Assembly: GCA_027324805.1 (NCBI GenBank)
Contig: DAHVRZ010000008.1
Coordinates: 1 to 34,743 of the forward strand
Origin: Candidatus Parcubacteria bacterium
GTDB lineage: Bacteria; Patescibacteriota; Minisyncoccia; UBA6257; 2-01-FULL-56-20
Direction: 5' to 3'
Length of the DNA: 34,743 bases
This document shows, in pieces, positions 1 to 27,337 of this stretch. The first letter of the stretch is position 1. Each line of letters starts with the position of its first letter. The notes under the pieces were generated by a model. It was not told where the DNA came from, did not search any database, and was given only the letters and a program-made list of their open reading frames with translations. A program made the position numbers and the translations under genes.

Positions 1-130
1 GGCGGATCTCGAACTCCTTTTACACATGGTAAATGAGCTTACTTATATATTACTCCCTAGACGGGAAAATGCAACAACTGGGGATAACTTACCCCTCTAA
101 ATGCTTATAAATAAAGGGAAAAGAGTGCTA

Positions 131-160
131 TTGACAATATAGATAATATAGTGATACAAT
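131..160 (+). promoter_or_regulatory. sigma70-type promoter TTGACA-N18-TACAAT
   Basis: TTGACA at 131-136, TACAAT at 155-160, predicted start about 167, upstream of the 245-1684 gene. Confidence 0.75.
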
Positions 161-182
161 ATGTTCAGTTCGTTTGCGATTG

Positions 183-238
183 TCCTCCTAGACATTTGCC
201 CCGCAGAATTGCCGCTGGGCGGCAGATGTCTAGGAGGA
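183..238 (+). promoter_or_regulatory. 5'UTR inverted repeat / hairpin sequestering the Shine-Dalgarno
   Basis: tcctcctagacatttgcc (183-200) pairs with ggcagatgtctaggagga (221-238): 18 bp with a single G-U. The right arm contains AGGAGG, 7 nt before ATG 245. Confidence 0.8.
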
Positions 239-244
239 GACATC

Positions 245-1684
245 ATGAACGCACAATCAATTGCAGACCAGACGCGCGAAAGGGCGAGAATTGCCCTCGA
301 GCAAGCCAAACTCAGCCAACAAGAAGCGGATGAACGGAAAAATCAGGAAGCGGCCCAGCGGCTGCGCTCCGACTATCCCGACATCCTCCGTGCCAAAATC
401 TCCGCCGGCCTGAACGTCGAAAAAACCGGCGACTACACACAGGACCTCGGCGCATTCCAGGGGCAGATGCGGGAGTTCGTCAACACGATCCCCGACGCTC
501 TGCTTCTTACCGCGGATTGCGACAAGCTGGCCCAAATCATCGGGTTCAGCGTCAGAATGCTGAGCGTCGTCCCGGATATTCCGGCCTTCGTTCTCGACAA
601 CAACCCGAGCGACGAGCGCCTCAAGCCGTACATCGACGCGGTGCTCAAACGGAACCTCCGCACTCGCACGTTCGCCAACCTTCTCGCAGATCCCGCGATC
701 CGCGAGCGACTGTATGCGACGTGTGAACCGGAAGCTCTGGAAGCTCGCATGAACACGCTGGCCTGGGAAATCCAGACAGCGGGCATCGCGGCAGACGACT
801 ATACCGACACCACAAGGTTCCAGGCGGAATGTCGCAATCGGTGGACGAAGATCTTTGAGGCGGTGGAAGCGGTCAACGCGACCGGCTACTGCCAGCTGAA
901 GAGCACCTACATCCTCGGACGGCGCATCGAGTGGCGGTCGGGGTGGAGCTACGACGAGACCCGTGGGTTCTATGGAGACGGCTCGATGATCGAGACATTG
1001 GATCGATCGTTTATCCTCTCCAAACTGAACGAGGGCAAGGAAGTTGCTCGCATCGCGAAGATCGTCGCCACCTTGAAGAGCTGGGCGGTTGCCATCGAGG
1101 CGTTGCCGACGGAAATCCAGTCGGCGATCGGTGAAATGGCCGGCGAATGCCCGGGGGAATGGACGGCGCTTCAGAAGCTCGTCTACAGCGCAGAGCGCTT
1201 CGGTGTCTGGTCAACCAACCAGTGCATCGATACCCATCAGCATCCGCTGTATATCGGCAAGCTCACCGAGCCACTGCTCGAAGTCCTGGATGGATACGCA
1301 ACGGCCAATCCGGCTGCGGCGGTAACCATTCTCCATTTCCTCGCCAACTGGATCGGGTCAGCGATGTTCTATAACTGCCCCGAGGAAAGCTTGGTGGACA
1401 ACGGGAAAGAACCAGAAGCATGGATTGAGGCGCTCAAACAGCCCGAGGCCCAGCTGGCATTCACCGCCGAGCAAGACCCAAAGCAGGTGCAACTCTACTT
1501 CCAACGCCTCCTGTCTGTGTGCGAACAGCACATCGACTGGCGCAAGTACGGGGACTTCAGCTTCCGTTGGTATCAGGACCGCACACCGGCAGAGGTCGCC
1601 GTCGAGTGGGTCGCCGTCTACAACGACGAACCCTACTGGCAGGCGAAGGCCGACGCGAAGAAGGCCGCCCCTGGTCTGGCATAA
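245..1684 (+). CDS. hypothetical protein (480 aa), no family recognised
   Basis: Long ORF, SD aggagga before ATG 245. The track start at 161 lies upstream of the predicted transcription start. Confidence 0.8.
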   Translation: MNAQSIADQTRERARIALEQAKLSQQEADERKNQEAAQRLRSDYPDILRAKISAGLNVEKTGDYTQDLGAFQGQMREFVNTIPDALLLTADCDKLAQIIGFSVRMLSVVPDIPAFVLDNNPSDERLKPYIDAVLKRNLRTRTFANLLADPAIRERLYATCEPEALEARMNTLAWEIQTAGIAADDYTDTTRFQAECRNRWTKIFEAVEAVNATGYCQLKSTYILGRRIEWRSGWSYDETRGFYGDGSMIETLDRSFILSKLNEGKEVARIAKIVATLKSWAVAIEALPTEIQSAIGEMAGECPGEWTALQKLVYSAERFGVWSTNQCIDTHQHPLYIGKLTEPLLEVLDGYATANPAAAVTILHFLANWIGSAMFYNCPEESLVDNGKEPEAWIEALKQPEAQLAFTAEQDPKQVQLYFQRLLSVCEQHIDWRKYGDFSFRWYQDRTPAEVAVEWVAVYNDEPYWQAKADAKKAAPGLA

Positions 1685-1721
1685 CCGCCAGACATGCAAT
1701 TGATGTGCGTTCCCTCTCAGA

Positions 1722-1754
1722 GGCCGCAGGACAAATCAGTCCCGCGGCCTTTTT
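1722..1754 (+). terminator. Rho-independent terminator
   Basis: ggccgcaggac-aaatca-gtcccgcggcc followed by ttttt. Confidence 0.8.
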
Positions 1755-1869
1755 CATTTCACTAAAGAAAATTTTCTCCTAACAAAGCGGTTCGGAAGTT
1801 TTCCAATTCCCGCAACAATCAAGGTTTTTGCCATATCTCCCTATGTGAGTTGTGATAGAATAAAGGGAA

Positions 1870-12704: not shown

Positions 12705-13847
12705 ATGCCTCAGGTAAAACGACTAGGGATCGCCGGCGCATCGTGCGCCGGGAAGTCCACTGCCGTTGCTCGAATCTCGGAGAAGATCCCCGCAATGACA
12801 GGATGGGATGTTTACCGCATCCCGGAATCCTTCACTACGTTCGTGGAGCTTTACGGAATGCCGCTCAACGACATCTTCAAGAGCGGCGATCGGAAAGCGG
12901 TCTGGGAAGCCGAACGCCTCCTTGTCCAGAATACGGTAGGGGTCTGCAGCCAGGCATACGGGCTTGCGCAGCTCCTCGACCGGAATTCGCTCATTCTCAT
13001 CGACAAACCAGTCAATGACTATGAGGTCTATTTCGGAGGGGATGCGCACGGGGAGGATCAGTTCCGGAATATCCTCTGGGAAGCCTGCCGGCTGACCCGC
13101 GAGGGATCGTTCGCGCTTTGCGACGCGGTCATCAAGCTGACCACCGCCGCGAAGGGGGCCGAACGGTTCTTTACGAATGCCAATAACAGCGCCCGTCGCG
13201 AGACCATCGAGGAGGCCCGTCACATGGACGACCTTCTTGAAGGGGCTTACAACGGCCATGGGCATCTCCGGATCATCGACAACTCGACGGACTTCGAGGG
13301 GAAGATGAACCGCGTTCTGCGGGAAGTGTGCCATCTCCTCGGATTCCCGGAACCTCTTGAGATCGAGCGCAAATACCGCGTCGGACTGCCGGATTTTGCA
13401 GCCTTTCCCGTTCCCGTCCGCACGGTGTTCATCGAGCAGGCATACCTGATCCCCGAACCCGGCGAGGAGCAGGTGCGCATACGGCGGCGTTCGACGGACG
13501 GGGTGCGATCCACGTACTACCGGACCGAGAAACGGCGCTACGACGGCGGCGGGCAGAGGATCGAGATCGAAAAGGAAATCGGCTGGCGCGAATACCACGA
13601 CCTGCTTCGCGAACGGCGCGACCTTTCGCGGGAGATCATCGTGAAGGACCGTCACTGCTTTGCATGGTCGGGCCAGTATTTCGAACTCGATGCATTCCGG
13701 AGCCCGGCGATCAAGGACCATCTCCTCGAAGTGGAGCTCACCGATATCGCCCAAGAGGTCGCGCTTCCGCCGTTCATCAACGTACTGGAAGACGTGACCG
13801 AAGATCCGGCGTGGACCAATTGGGAACTTTCACGCCGAAGCTCCTAG
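12705..13847 (+). CDS. P-loop NTPase (AAA_28/NadR-like) fused to CYTH domain; Ttd14-like architecture
   Basis: GIAGASCAGKST Walker A at N-terminus; LEIERKYRV (ExExK) CYTH signature at about aa 223, then alternating charged/beta CYTH strands; SD aaaggagg. Confidence 0.82.
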   Translation: MPQVKRLGIAGASCAGKSTAVARISEKIPAMTGWDVYRIPESFTTFVELYGMPLNDIFKSGDRKAVWEAERLLVQNTVGVCSQAYGLAQLLDRNSLILIDKPVNDYEVYFGGDAHGEDQFRNILWEACRLTREGSFALCDAVIKLTTAAKGAERFFTNANNSARRETIEEARHMDDLLEGAYNGHGHLRIIDNSTDFEGKMNRVLREVCHLLGFPEPLEIERKYRVGLPDFAAFPVPVRTVFIEQAYLIPEPGEEQVRIRRRSTDGVRSTYYRTEKRRYDGGGQRIEIEKEIGWREYHDLLRERRDLSREIIVKDRHCFAWSGQYFELDAFRSPAIKDHLLEVELTDIAQEVALPPFINVLEDVTEDPAWTNWELSRRSS

Positions 13848-22699: not shown

Positions 22700-25600
22700 A
22701 TGTATAAAACAATCCACAAACGTTCCCAGCCTGCGAAGGCTGTGGCGTTCGGATTGGTCAAGATGGCGTTGTTCGGGATCATTATCTCGAGCTCCCTCTT
22801 TCCGACGGCGTACATCCCTTCTGTGAATATGGCGCATGCGGCGGTGACTACGAGTTCGTCTTCGAGCAGCAGTTCGAGTTCGAGCTCCAGTTCCAGCAGC
22901 AGTTCGAGCAGCAGCTCGTCCTCGTCCTCTGGTTCCGACAGCGGTTCGACCTCGACCGGCACTTCCGGTTCGGGATCGACCGGTAGCGGCACCGTCGGTA
23001 CGGGTACGACCGGCACGACCTCGACCTCCACGTCGACCAGCAGTTCGACTTCTTCGTCGAACTCTTCTTCGACGGTGACCACCACCTCGAGCTCTACAAG
23101 TTCGGGTGGCGGATCCTCGTCGGGTTCGGCGTCGGGCTCCGGTTCTTCGTCCGGTTCCGCATCCGGCACTTCGAGTGGGAACGCAAGTTCCACCTCGGGT
23201 ACCTCCGGTACCGGTTCGACGTCCGGCAGTTCGGGCTCCTCGACGACCTCAACGTCGGGCTCCAATGCGAGCTCGACCGCGAGTTCCACCGCGAGCAGTT
23301 CCTCGAGCAGCAGCTCGTCTTCGGGCTCCAATTCGAGCTCGACCACGAACACCGGCCCGGGAACCTGCTCGGTCGCAACCGCGCTTACCGACAGCGTGAA
23401 CAACGCGACGCCGGGTGTGGGCGATACCATCGTCTACACGCTCACCGGCGCGCCGGCATTCACCACCTCCACGCAGATCACCGTGACCGACCAGCTCGGC
23501 GCGGGGCTCACGTTCGTTTCCGCGGCTCCGTCCACGGGAACCTACTCAAGCTCGACCGGCGTTTGGAGCGTGGGGACGCTGAACGGCGCCTCGACGATCA
23601 CCCTCACCATTACGGCGACGGTGAACGCGGGCACGGAAGGGCAGACGATCGCCAATGACCCCGGCATCTCGTACGTGCAGAGCAACTGCACCGAGAGCTC
23701 GGCGGTCACCGGCGTTTCGATCACCGTCCAGGGCGGGGCTCCGACCTCGACCACGCCGATTGCCGATATCGCGGTCACAAAGACCGCTGATGTCGCGACC
23801 ACCACAGAAGGGAGCACCATCCACTACACCGTTACGGCGCAGGACCTCGGTCCCGCGACGTCAACTGGCGTGGTGGCAACGGATACGCTTCCGTCAGACT
23901 TGACCTTCGAGAACGCTACGGCTTCCGTAGGCACCTACAGCAGTTCGACGGGCACGTGGACGATCGGCGATCTTATGCCGAACGCCACGGCGACCCTCGA
24001 CATTGCTGCGAAAGTAAACACAGGCACCGCCGGCACGACGATCGTGAACACCGCGATCATCGGCGAGTCCGCGAGCACGACCGACAATAACCTCTCGAAC
24101 AACAGTTCGAGTGCGTCGGTCTTCGTGGAATCGACCACCCCGGCCCCCTGTTCGCTCACCGCGGCCCAGTTCGAGGCTGCGGTAAACAGCGGCGAGATCA
24201 GCTGGAATCCCATTTCGGTGGGCACGACCACGGCGTCGTTCACTATAAAGAACGGCACCTCGTGCACCGCGCCGATCAGCCTGATCTCGTGGAAGATGTT
24301 CGTGGCCCAGGGCCAATCGCATTGGCTTTCGACCCAGCAGCGGTTTGACGTCGCTTCGACCTCGCTTTCGGCGAGTTCGACGCAGACGCTCACCGTGAAC
24401 CTGCCTACGTGCAGGGCGCAGGTCGATGCAATGTACGGCCAGGCGCCGACATCGCTCCTCGACAGCAATCCGTACAGTTATCCGAACGTTCCATTCAACC
24501 TCGCTTATGCGTTTGCGAATGCGAACCTTCCGCTCTGCGGCGCAACGTCGACGACCACCGGATTTTCGATATCGAAAACGGTGGACAACGGCTCGCCGAA
24601 GGCGGGGGACACGGTGCATTACACCGTGACGGTGGGTAATATCGGATCCGCCACGTCGACCGGAACGGTGGCGACGGACACCATCCCTGCGGGCCTGACC
24701 CTCGTTTCCGCGACCACGTCGCAGGGCTCCTATGCCTCTTCGACGGGCACGTGGACGATCGGCACCCTCGCGGCGAGCTCTACGGCAGTACTCCAGTACG
24801 CCGCGCTCGTTGATGCGTCGGATACCGCAGGCATGCAGATCACGAACACCGCCACCATCGCGAGCGATACGGCAAGCGTGACGATCACGGTCCAGGGCGG
24901 CGGCGGGCCTACGCCCGTCTACGCCGACATCAGCGTCCAAAAGACCGCCGATGTCACCTCGACCAGCGAGGGTGGCACCATCCACTACACGATCACGGCG
25001 AAGGACCTCGGTCCCTCGACCTCGACCGACGTGGTGGCGACGGACACCATCCCTGCGGGCCTGACCCTCGTTTCCGCGACCACGTCGCAGGGCTCCTATG
25101 CCTCTTCGACGGGTACGTGGACGATCGGCACCCTCGCGGCGAACGCCACGGCGACCCTTGAGATCGCCGCGACGGCGAACGCCGGCACGGCCGGCACGAC
25201 GATCGTGAACACCGCGATCATCGGCGAGTCGCCCTCGCTCACCGATACCAATCCGAGCAACAACAGCTCGAGCGTATCGGTCTACGTGCGGGGCGGCGGC
25301 GGAGGCGGCACCACGGCCGATCTCGGCATCGTGAAGACGGTGGATAACGCGACGCCCAATCCGGGCGACACGGTCCACTTCACCCTCACGGCGACCGATC
25401 ATGGCCCGTCGGATTCCCAGTTCACGGAAGTGACGGACAAGCTGCCCGCGGGGCTCAGCTTTGTATCGTCGACCGTGTCAACGGGCACTTACAATCTGAC
25501 GAGTGGCCTGTGGACGATCGGCAATCTCGCGGACAACGCGACGGCCACGCTTGATATGGCGGCCGTCGTCGGCTCCAACCAAGCGGGGCAAGCGATCGTG

Positions 25601-27337
25601 AACACGGCGTCGATTTCAACGACCCTTGCGTCGCAGATCGATCCGAATCCTTCGAACAACACATCGAGCGTAACGCTCAATGTGCAGACGCCCGGCGTCC
25701 CGGCAGCCGACCTTTCGGTCGTCAAAACCGCGGATGTCGCGACCACTACGGAGGGCGGCACGATCCACTATACGATCGCAGTGACCGATAACGGTCCCGC
25801 GACGTCGACGGGAGCGGTTGCCACCGATACATTGCCTTCCGGACTTACGTTCGAGAATGCAACGGCATCGGTCGGCGCCTACTCCAGCTCGACCGGCGTA
25901 TGGACGATCGGCGACCTCGCGCCCAGCTCGACGGCGACGCTTGATATCGCTGCACTTGTGAACTCCGGTACTGCCGGAACAGTCATCACGAACACAGCGG
26001 TCGTCGGCGAATCGACGAGCACCGTGGACAACAACCTCTCGAACAACAGTTCGAGCGTGTCGGTCTACGTGCAGGGCGGCGGCGGAGGCGGTCCCGTTGC
26101 GGACGTTTCCGTGGCGAAATCCGTCAACAATGCGAATCCCTCGACGGGCGACACCGTGACCTACACGATCACGGCGATGGATAAGGGTACGGCGACCTCC
26201 ACTGGCGTGGTGGCCACCGATACGCTTCCATCCGGCCTCACCTTCGTTTCGGCAACACCGTCGGTCGGGACCTACTCGACCTCGACAGGTGTCTGGACGA
26301 TCGGTGACCTTGGTCCGTCCGCGACCGCAACCCTCGCGATTGCCGCAACGGTGAACTCCGGCACTGCCGGACAGTCCATCACGAACACCGTGACGATCGG
26401 CGATACATCGCCGTCCGACACGGACACCTCCGACAAGACCGCGAGCGCAACGCTTACGGTACAAGGCGGCGGCGGTTGCACAAGCAACTGCGGCGGTTCG
26501 GTACCGACTGCCGAGATCGGCATCGTGAAGACGGTGGATAACGCGAACCCGGATGCGGGAGCGACGATCCACTATACCCTCGCGGTGACCGCTTCCGGCC
26601 CTTCACCTTCGATCGGTGTCGTCGCAAGCGACACTCTTCCGGCAGGCGTGACGTTCGTTTCCGCTTCGTCTTCGATGGGGTCGTATGATTCGGCCACCGG
26701 CGAATGGACGATCGGCAGTATGAACGTCGGCCAGACGGCAACGCTCGTCATCACGGCGACGGTCAATGCGTCCGATCCTTCGGGCGAGACGATCACAAAC
26801 ACCGGTACCGTCCACGAATCCCCGACGGTCAATGACCAGAACTCCGGCAATAACACTTCGAGCGTGACGATCACCGTCGCGGGCGGAGGCGGCGGAGGAG
26901 GGGGTACGGTGACGGTCGGCGGCGGTGGCGGCACGGTGCTCGGCACAAGCACCACACCCGGCCAGGTTCTCGGAATCTCCACGTGCGGCCTTTACCTCGA
27001 CGAGTATATTCACCCGATACGCAAGTATCTGAATACGCCGGCGCAGGTGATGAAGCTGCAGGAGTTTCTGAACGCCAACCTGGGAACCAACCTGCCCGTA
27101 ACGGGCTACTACGGCCCGCTCACGATCGCGGCGGTCAATCAGTTCCAGAATAAGTACCACACGGAGCTTCTGCTTCCGTGGGTACCTCTCGGGCTTACGA
27201 ACGAGTACACTCCGACGTCCTACGTCTATCAGACGACGTGGCGCTGGATCAATCTCATCGAGTGCCCTTCGCTCAATCTGCCGATGCCGACCCTTAAGGT
27301 CGATGACTTCGCCACTTCGTACACGTACACGTTCTAA
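22700..27337 (+). CDS. giant surface protein: signal peptide, Ser/Thr/Gly stalk, eight DUF11-type repeats, C-terminal peptidoglycan-binding-like domain
   Basis: 1545 aa; MALFGIIISSSLFPTAYIPSVNMAHAAV signal; ADIxVxKTxDxxxPxxGxTxxYTxT repeated 8 times; MKLQEFLNANLGTNLPVTGYYGPLTIAAVNQFQ. Confidence 0.9.
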   Translation: MYKTIHKRSQPAKAVAFGLVKMALFGIIISSSLFPTAYIPSVNMAHAAVTTSSSSSSSSSSSSSSSSSSSSSSSSSSGSDSGSTSTGTSGSGSTGSGTVGTGTTGTTSTSTSTSSSTSSSNSSSTVTTTSSSTSSGGGSSSGSASGSGSSSGSASGTSSGNASSTSGTSGTGSTSGSSGSSTTSTSGSNASSTASSTASSSSSSSSSSGSNSSSTTNTGPGTCSVATALTDSVNNATPGVGDTIVYTLTGAPAFTTSTQITVTDQLGAGLTFVSAAPSTGTYSSSTGVWSVGTLNGASTITLTITATVNAGTEGQTIANDPGISYVQSNCTESSAVTGVSITVQGGAPTSTTPIADIAVTKTADVATTTEGSTIHYTVTAQDLGPATSTGVVATDTLPSDLTFENATASVGTYSSSTGTWTIGDLMPNATATLDIAAKVNTGTAGTTIVNTAIIGESASTTDNNLSNNSSSASVFVESTTPAPCSLTAAQFEAAVNSGEISWNPISVGTTTASFTIKNGTSCTAPISLISWKMFVAQGQSHWLSTQQRFDVASTSLSASSTQTLTVNLPTCRAQVDAMYGQAPTSLLDSNPYSYPNVPFNLAYAFANANLPLCGATSTTTGFSISKTVDNGSPKAGDTVHYTVTVGNIGSATSTGTVATDTIPAGLTLVSATTSQGSYASSTGTWTIGTLAASSTAVLQYAALVDASDTAGMQITNTATIASDTASVTITVQGGGGPTPVYADISVQKTADVTSTSEGGTIHYTITAKDLGPSTSTDVVATDTIPAGLTLVSATTSQGSYASSTGTWTIGTLAANATATLEIAATANAGTAGTTIVNTAIIGESPSLTDTNPSNNSSSVSVYVRGGGGGGTTADLGIVKTVDNATPNPGDTVHFTLTATDHGPSDSQFTEVTDKLPAGLSFVSSTVSTGTYNLTSGLWTIGNLADNATATLDMAAVVGSNQAGQAIVNTASISTTLASQIDPNPSNNTSSVTLNVQTPGVPAADLSVVKTADVATTTEGGTIHYTIAVTDNGPATSTGAVATDTLPSGLTFENATASVGAYSSSTGVWTIGDLAPSSTATLDIAALVNSGTAGTVITNTAVVGESTSTVDNNLSNNSSSVSVYVQGGGGGGPVADVSVAKSVNNANPSTGDTVTYTITAMDKGTATSTGVVATDTLPSGLTFVSATPSVGTYSTSTGVWTIGDLGPSATATLAIAATVNSGTAGQSITNTVTIGDTSPSDTDTSDKTASATLTVQGGGGCTSNCGGSVPTAEIGIVKTVDNANPDAGATIHYTLAVTASGPSPSIGVVASDTLPAGVTFVSASSSMGSYDSATGEWTIGSMNVGQTATLVITATVNASDPSGETITNTGTVHESPTVNDQNSGNNTSSVTITVAGGGGGGGGTVTVGGGGGTVLGTSTTPGQVLGISTCGLYLDEYIHPIRKYLNTPAQVMKLQEFLNANLGTNLPVTGYYGPLTIAAVNQFQNKYHTELLLPWVPLGLTNEYTPTSYVYQTTWRWINLIECPSLNLPMPTLKVDDFATSYTYTF
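24667..24776 (+). repeat. 110-bp direct repeat copy 1 within DUF11 array
   Basis: Near-identical (one mismatch seen) to 25033-25142, offset 366 bp = 122 codons. Confidence 0.85.
25033..25142 (+). repeat. 110-bp direct repeat copy 2 within DUF11 array
   Basis: ggtggcgacggacaccatccctgcgggcctgaccctcgtttccgcgaccacgtcgcagggctcc... as in copy 1. Confidence 0.85.

What the first reader, a model, noticed from the sequence alone, without database searches (positions are those of the whole stretch)
131..250. Shine-Dalgarno buried in an 18-bp hairpin directly after a strong promoter (candidate riboregulator or operator)
The 5'UTR arm TCCTCCTAGACATTTGCC is complementary to GGCAGATGTCTAGGAGGA over 18 positions (one G-U). 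The second arm carries the AGGAGG of the 480-aa ORF, so the left arm mimics the 16S anti-SD and continues the pairing well past it. With TTGACA-N18-TACAAT at 131-160, the transcript would start about 16 nt before the stem. Such a stem should silence translation unless opened by a protein, small RNA, temperature or processing. Alternatively the DNA inverted repeat is a repressor operator. The gene product has no family I recognise, so regulator and target may both be new.
Basis: partly seen in the sequence, partly recalled or inferred. Interest (0 to 1): 0.72.

Follow-up and report, generated by a model that had tools for sequence, protein, structure and literature searches.

The report
RNA hairpin locks mobile cargo gene
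In a tiny-genome bacterium, a gene of unknown function at the edge of a probable mobile DNA element starts with an RNA hairpin that should hide its ribosome-binding site and keep it silent until the start of the message is removed or opened; locks of this general kind are known from phages and toxin genes, but the gene behind this one is new.

Summary
Arms 183-200 and 221-238 pair over 18 bp (one G-U), just after an 11/12 sigma-70 promoter. The right arm holds the AGGAGG of a 479-aa orphan gene. The stem is far beyond chance: six shuffled windows reached at most 11-12 bp. Exposing the SD costs about 16-17 kcal/mol, against a median of 4.5 for 78 SD-led starts in held DNA. It drops to 1-2 kcal/mol once the 5' end lies at 190 or later. 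The stem therefore behaves as a cis translational lock that depends on the 5' end, not as a thermometer and probably not as an operator.

Covariation could not be tested. The only other copy found, in another species of the genus, is 100% identical over 1816 bp.

Following that copy showed what the locus is. The block ends exactly at a CCCGCAAC att core matching the 3' end of a CAU-loop tRNA-like gene upstream of ybaB. G004 shows a site without an insertion. G001 and G000 show tRNA-like genes with inserts. In G000 a serine-recombinase C-terminus runs into the tRNA-like gene. So this is most likely an SD-locked cargo gene at the right end of an integrative element. The release signal and the protein's function are unknown. 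It is a new member of a known kind.

The parts
131..160 (+). Sigma-70-type promoter TTGACA-N18-TACAAT with TG before the -10; inferred start of transcription about 167
   Evidence: 11 of 12 matches, TG present; start site inferred
168..182 (+). Leader segment predicted to pair with codons 4-9 (about 254-272), closing an outer helix around the start codon
   Evidence: predicted, not tested
183..200 (+). Left arm of the stem: anti-SD-like TCCTCC plus 12 further paired bases
201..220 (+). Apical part of the hairpin (further pairs 201-206/215-220 with a bulge, 8-nt loop)
221..238 (+). Right arm of the stem, containing the SD AGGAGG (232-237)
245..1684 (+). Orphan gene, 479 aa, no known family, host-like GC3 of 0.75
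1719..1752 (+). Probable intrinsic terminator hairpin (GGCCGC...GCGGCC followed by T-rich tail)
   Evidence: (fold) and sequence; the simple scan did not list it
1795..1816 (+). Right end of the shared block and probable attR, GAAGTTTTCCAATTCCCGCAAC; CCCGCAAC equals the 3' end of the tRNA-like gene
1..1816 (+). Block 100% identical in another species of the genus (L005 3865-5680); right end of the proposed integrative element
   Evidence: identity runs to the first base of this contig, so the true left edge here is unknown

Best explanation
The hairpin is a cis-acting translational lock on a cargo gene at the right (attR) end of an integrative element that uses a large serine recombinase and inserts at the 3' end of a tRNA-like gene upstream of ybaB. 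The strong promoter at 131-160 makes an mRNA whose 5' leader folds at once into an 18-bp (up to 24-bp) stem that swallows the SD. Neither this mRNA nor read-through transcripts from upstream should be translated appreciably. Translation should become possible when the 5' end of the mRNA lies beyond the first 7 or so bases of the left arm, through nuclease processing of the stem, 5' trimming or an internal start, or when a trans factor opens the stem. Shown here: the sequence, the predicted fold, the sharp dependence on the 5' end, the identical copy in a second species, the att-like boundary and the recombinase fragment at the tRNA-like gene. Inferred: that the RNA folds so in the cell, that release is by 5'-end shortening (most likely route, about 0.35), and that the gene is cargo.
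For: The stem holds the whole SD, and exposing it costs 16-17 kcal/mol for any 5' end tested from 1 to 183 but only 0.9-1.7 for 5' ends at 190 or later or with the left arm complemented. It is the top outlier of 78 SD-led starts and of the window's own genes, where the next highest is 4.9. z is about -6, and an 18-bp stem compares with 11-12 bp in shuffles. Promoter, stem, SD and ATG are in the right order and spacing. Mobile context: 1816 bp are 100% identical in a second species whose flanks differ. Identity stops exactly after CCCGCAAC, the 3' end of a tRNA-like gene upstream of ybaB in G001, G004 and G006. Native-looking AATCAAGG follows in the window, and AACCAAGG follows the tRNA-like gene of G004. 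The genome's own tRNA-like gene lies 380 bp from the end of contig C8, followed by an ORF that runs into it and matches the C-terminus of a 534-aa serine recombinase, E = 4e-16. The other copy's contig carries a resolvase-domain recombinase N-terminus and a PADLOC PDC-M04A/B candidate defence pair just upstream of the block.
Against: There is no covariation or other comparative evidence for the stem, because both copies are identical. No transcription data exist; the promoter and its start are predictions, and a start inside the left arm would leave the gene unlocked. The gene product has no homologue, so expression and function are unproven. In the window's genome the element body is not assembled: contig C59 starts with the block and C8 ends inside the recombinase, so the link is inferred. 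In L005 the sequence after attR does not resemble the native flank. Both genomes are metagenome-type draft assemblies, so a cross-assembly error is not fully excluded.
Confidence: 0.6

Rival explanations
1. T4 lysozyme-type read-through lock. The stem silences only long transcripts entering from upstream genes, while the true productive transcript starts inside or after the left arm and is freely translated.
For: Transcripts with 5' ends at 190 or later are open. T4 e, soc, 49 and I-TevI work this way (PMC3014915). In L005 the upstream genes run in the same direction and end 2 nt before the block, so read-through is possible.
Against: The only promoter-like site found lies upstream of the stem (131-160, 11 of 12 matches) and none lies between the arms.
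Confidence: 0.17
2. DNA operator: the inverted repeat is the binding site of a repressor and its RNA fold is incidental.
For: A long inverted repeat just downstream of a strong promoter is a common operator position.
Against: Half-sites of 18 bp with centres 38 bp apart are unusual. The imperfect position is a G-U pair. The repeat runs exactly to the end of the SD. There is no second site in the genome by its 9-mer, and no regulator is recognised beside it in either contig except the element's own HTH_36 protein in L005.
Confidence: 0.08
3. The stem makes an mRNA stabiliser, a nuclease processing site or a small RNA, and translation control is secondary.
For: A stem of about 18-24 bp near a 5' end is a plausible double-strand nuclease substrate; -39.3 kcal/mol for 183-238.
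Against: It covers the whole SD, which a stabiliser need not do. The mir-214 Rfam match is below that family's threshold and biologically meaningless here.
Confidence: 0.1
4. Assembly or binning artefact: the identical 1816 bp belong to one organism and were joined to the other by the assembler.
For: The block starts at the first base of the window's contig and is 100.000% identical across species. The other contig has a low listed coverage of 1.53.
Against: Both copies lie in the same syntenic neighbourhood and orientation upstream of ybaB and tRNA-Met, and the break falls exactly at an att-like core. Even then the hairpin would be real in one organism.
Confidence: 0.05

Closest known systems
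RBS-sequestering hairpins of phage T4 genes e, soc, 49 and I-TevI (PMC3014915) and phage Aeh1 mobE (title cited there)
   Same: A stem in the 5' leader sequesters the SD or start of a gene in mobile or viral DNA, and transcripts lacking the 5' half of the stem are translated.
   Different: Here a strong promoter lies upstream of the whole stem, so even the gene's own transcript should be locked; no internal promoter was seen. The host is a small-genome bacterium and the gene is an orphan.
Type I toxin mRNAs with inactive primary transcripts (reviewed in PMC11228461)
   Same: The primary transcript folds so that the SD is hidden and is expected to need processing or refolding before translation.
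   Different: The product is a 479-aa, apparently soluble helical protein, not a small membrane toxin. No antisense antitoxin RNA was found or sought experimentally.
IS10/IS200-type protection of transposase translation (from general knowledge)
   Same: A mobile gene with its SD hidden in leader RNA.
   Different: The protein matches no transposase family and the element ends are att-like, not terminal inverted repeats.
tRNA-targeted genomic islands (Islander, PMC4383910)
   Same: The 3' end of a tRNA-like gene is repeated at the far end of the insert, with a recombinase gene adjacent to the tRNA-like gene.
   Different: The recombinase is a large serine recombinase rather than a tyrosine integrase, and the target is an atypical CAU-loop tRNA-like gene not called by ARAGORN.

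Membership tests
SD-sequestering translational hairpin | SD fully inside a stable helix of the 5' leader | tested here: met
   (by prediction)
SD-sequestering translational hairpin | Removing one arm exposes the SD | tested here: met
   In silico only: cost 16.8 to 1.7 kcal/mol
SD-sequestering translational hairpin | Helix kept by compensatory changes in relatives | tested here: inconclusive
   Only an identical copy exists in the collections searched; viral scan gave no answer
SD-sequestering translational hairpin | Translation rises when the stem is broken | not testable with these tools
   needs a reporter
RNA thermometer | SD opens over a physiological temperature range | tested here: not met
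   9.6 kcal/mol still needed at 75 C
Known riboswitch or cis-regulatory RNA family (Rfam 15) | Match above the gathering score | tested here: not met
Type I toxin-antitoxin mRNA | Small hydrophobic toxin of less than about 60 aa | tested here: not met
   479-aa charged protein, helical in a low-confidence model
Type I toxin-antitoxin mRNA | Antisense RNA antitoxin | not tested
   no transcription data
tRNA-targeted integrative element | tRNA 3' end duplicated at the far end of the insert | tested here: met
   CCCGCAAC at 1809-1816 and at the tRNA-like 3' end in the same genome, L155; only 8 bp exact
tRNA-targeted integrative element | Recombinase gene in the element next to the tRNA | tested here: met
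   C-terminus of a large serine recombinase running into the tRNA-like gene
tRNA-targeted integrative element | Complete element with both ends on one contig | tested here: not met
   Split between contigs C8 and C59 in G000; the contig of L005 ends inside the recombinase
Insertion sequence | Transposase gene and terminal inverted repeats | tested here: not met
   no transposase family match; no terminal repeats listed

The most novel reading that the evidence does not exclude
A new family of mobile accessory proteins in small-genome bacteria is kept silent by an SD lock that acts on its own strong promoter's transcript, and is released only by a specific event such as processing on phage attack or after element transfer, so that translation can switch on from mRNA already present.
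Probability: 0.17. Interest if true: 0.65.

Novelty: new member of a known kind. Interest (0 to 1): 0.42.

Why it matters
It is a clean, testable example of a very strong cis translational lock in a bacterium of the small-genome kind where almost no RNA regulation has been studied, and it sits on a gene with no known relatives. If the lock is real, the gene is transcribed but held silent, which points to a costly or conditional product such as a defence or element-transfer function. The att boundary also gives a handle on integrative elements that use serine recombinases at a tRNA-like gene in this lineage.

Tried and rejected
Homologue searches for covariation: order, class, phylum and family genomes, GTDB contigs, plasmids, phages and E. 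coli all failed apart from one identical copy. The viral-contig scan did not complete. AlphaFold on the single sequence gave mean pLDDT 41, so no fold search was made. A TCCTCC-N-GGAGGA scan of the family found many terminator-like repeats; its gap limit (42) missed this very site (gap 44). The mir-214 Rfam match was rejected as generic long-hairpin similarity. Integron attC was considered and rejected: the ends lack the GTTRRRY/RYYYAAC cores. A cassette-array reading of repeated CCGCAAC...CCAAGG motifs in G001 and G007 was left open. An empty-site search using the gene right of the block in L005 gave homologues elsewhere but no matching junction.

Full report
What is there. The window is the whole of contig C59 of a 0.88-Mb, 96.5% complete genome. 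A promoter-like site TTGACA-N18-TACAAT with TG before the -10 lies at 131-160. At 183-200 and 221-238 lie two arms that pair over 18 positions with one G-U, extending to 24-nt arms with a bulge. The right arm contains AGGAGG, 7 nt before ATG 245 of a 479-aa ORF. A probable terminator hairpin follows the gene at 1719-1752.

More than chance. The leader folds at -54.6 kcal/mol with z = -6.0 and no shuffle of 200 as stable. Longest stems in six shuffled windows were 11-12 bp, against 18. Among 78 SD-led starts in held DNA this one has the highest cost of SD exposure, 15.2 against a median of 4.5 kcal/mol. Most other stems of 18 bp or more in 361 kb look like terminators, and none ends in an SD plus start codon.

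How it should work. The SD costs 16-17 kcal/mol to expose for every tested transcript that starts at or before 183, but only 0.9-1.7 once the 5' end is at 190 or later. Changing the left arm has the same effect, while heating to 75 C leaves 9.6 kcal/mol. The stem therefore acts like a switch read by the position of the mRNA's 5' end. The gene's own promoter lies upstream of the stem, so its primary transcript should be silent. Release by processing or trimming is the most economical route but is inference. The 9-mer CTAGGAGGA occurs nowhere else in the genome, which gives no support to a trans RNA or a regulon with that seed.

What the gene is. No family matched in Pfam, PHROGs, PADLOC or NCBIfam, and the PDB gave nothing usable. 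The single-sequence fold is unusable. Its GC3 of 0.75 is like that of the resident genes. The only other copy, in JAJYDL010000007.1 (L005; apparently the same contig as G002:C14, another species of the genus), is 100% identical over 1816 bp including the hairpin, so covariation cannot be tested.

Following the copy outward. The identity ends exactly at window 1816, after TTCCAATTCCCGCAAC. CCCGCAAC is the 3' end of a tRNA-like gene with a CAU anticodon loop that lies upstream of ybaB in G001, G004 and G006. ARAGORN does not call it, and Rfam gives only a sub-threshold tRNA-Sec match. In G004 the tRNA-like gene runs directly into AACCAAGG, as in a site without an insertion. The window has AATCAAGG after its CCCGCAAC. 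In G001 a second copy of the core, with a right end like the window's (GAAGTTTTCCAATCCCCGCAAC), lies 1.5 kb from its tRNA-like gene.

A prediction that held. If the block is the right end of an insert, the genome's own tRNA-like gene should be followed by foreign DNA. It was found on contig C8, 380 bp from that contig's end. It is followed by an ORF that runs into the tRNA-like gene and matches the C-terminus of a 534-aa serine recombinase of G001 at E = 4e-16. In L005 the block is preceded by a resolvase-domain recombinase, an HTH_36 protein and a PADLOC PDC-M04A/B candidate defence pair, whose last gene ends 2 nt before the block. Both copies lie upstream of ybaB, an M15 peptidase gene and tRNA-Met in the same order.

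Comparison. RBS-sequestering stems are well known from phage T4 genes e, soc, 49 and I-TevI (PMC3014915), and inactive primary transcripts from type I toxins (PMC11228461). This case works like them in outline but is a member of neither family. I file it as a new member of the general kind 'SD-sequestering leader hairpin', on an orphan mobile gene.

Limits. Everything about expression is prediction. The element is split across contigs, the att core is only 8 bp exact, and both genomes are draft, metagenome-type assemblies. The viral-contig collection could not be searched because the machine gave no answer.

Noticed in passing
L155 1045-1122 (G000:C8), L084 about 445-522, L087 about 1435-1512, L082 4859-4936 (-): Highly conserved tRNA-like gene with a CAU anticodon loop, missed by ARAGORN and scored below threshold by Rfam's tRNA-Sec model. 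The T-arm in G001 shows a compensatory change (AAGTCCGAGTCTT against AGGTCCGAGTCCT). It may be an atypical initiator tRNA.
   Followed up: partly
L155 1009-1500 (-): C-terminus of a large serine recombinase whose reading frame runs into the tRNA-like gene, at a contig end.
   Followed up: yes
L005 2658-3862: PADLOC candidate defence pair PDC-M04A (DUF3800) and PDC-M04B directly upstream of the block, lower in GC than the neighbours.
   Followed up: partly
L005 5682-5759: 25-codon ORF remnant (TIDDVIIKAMERRGSASVDDFGYRK) begins right after the att core and overlaps the next gene's start; possibly a gene cut by insertion.
   Followed up: partly
L085 1-654 and 707-796 (G007): Reverse transcriptase gene (group II intron-like match) followed by a perfect 32-bp inverted repeat, then a CCCGCAAC-AGCCAAGG junction upstream of ybaB: another probable insert at the same hotspot.
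   Followed up: partly
L005 2497-2560 and G002:C28 about 13361-13531: A 16-bp stem upstream of the HTH_36 region is kept in a 75%-identical second element in the same genome, with a compensatory A-T to G-C change.
   Followed up: no
L087 2457 and 3010, L085 677 and 890: Repeated motifs of the form GTTCC..CCGCAAC..CCAAGG between genes at the hotspot suggest serial insertions or a cassette-like array.
   Followed up: partly
window 22700-27337: 1545-aa protein with many DUF11-type repeats, a likely large surface protein.
   Followed up: no
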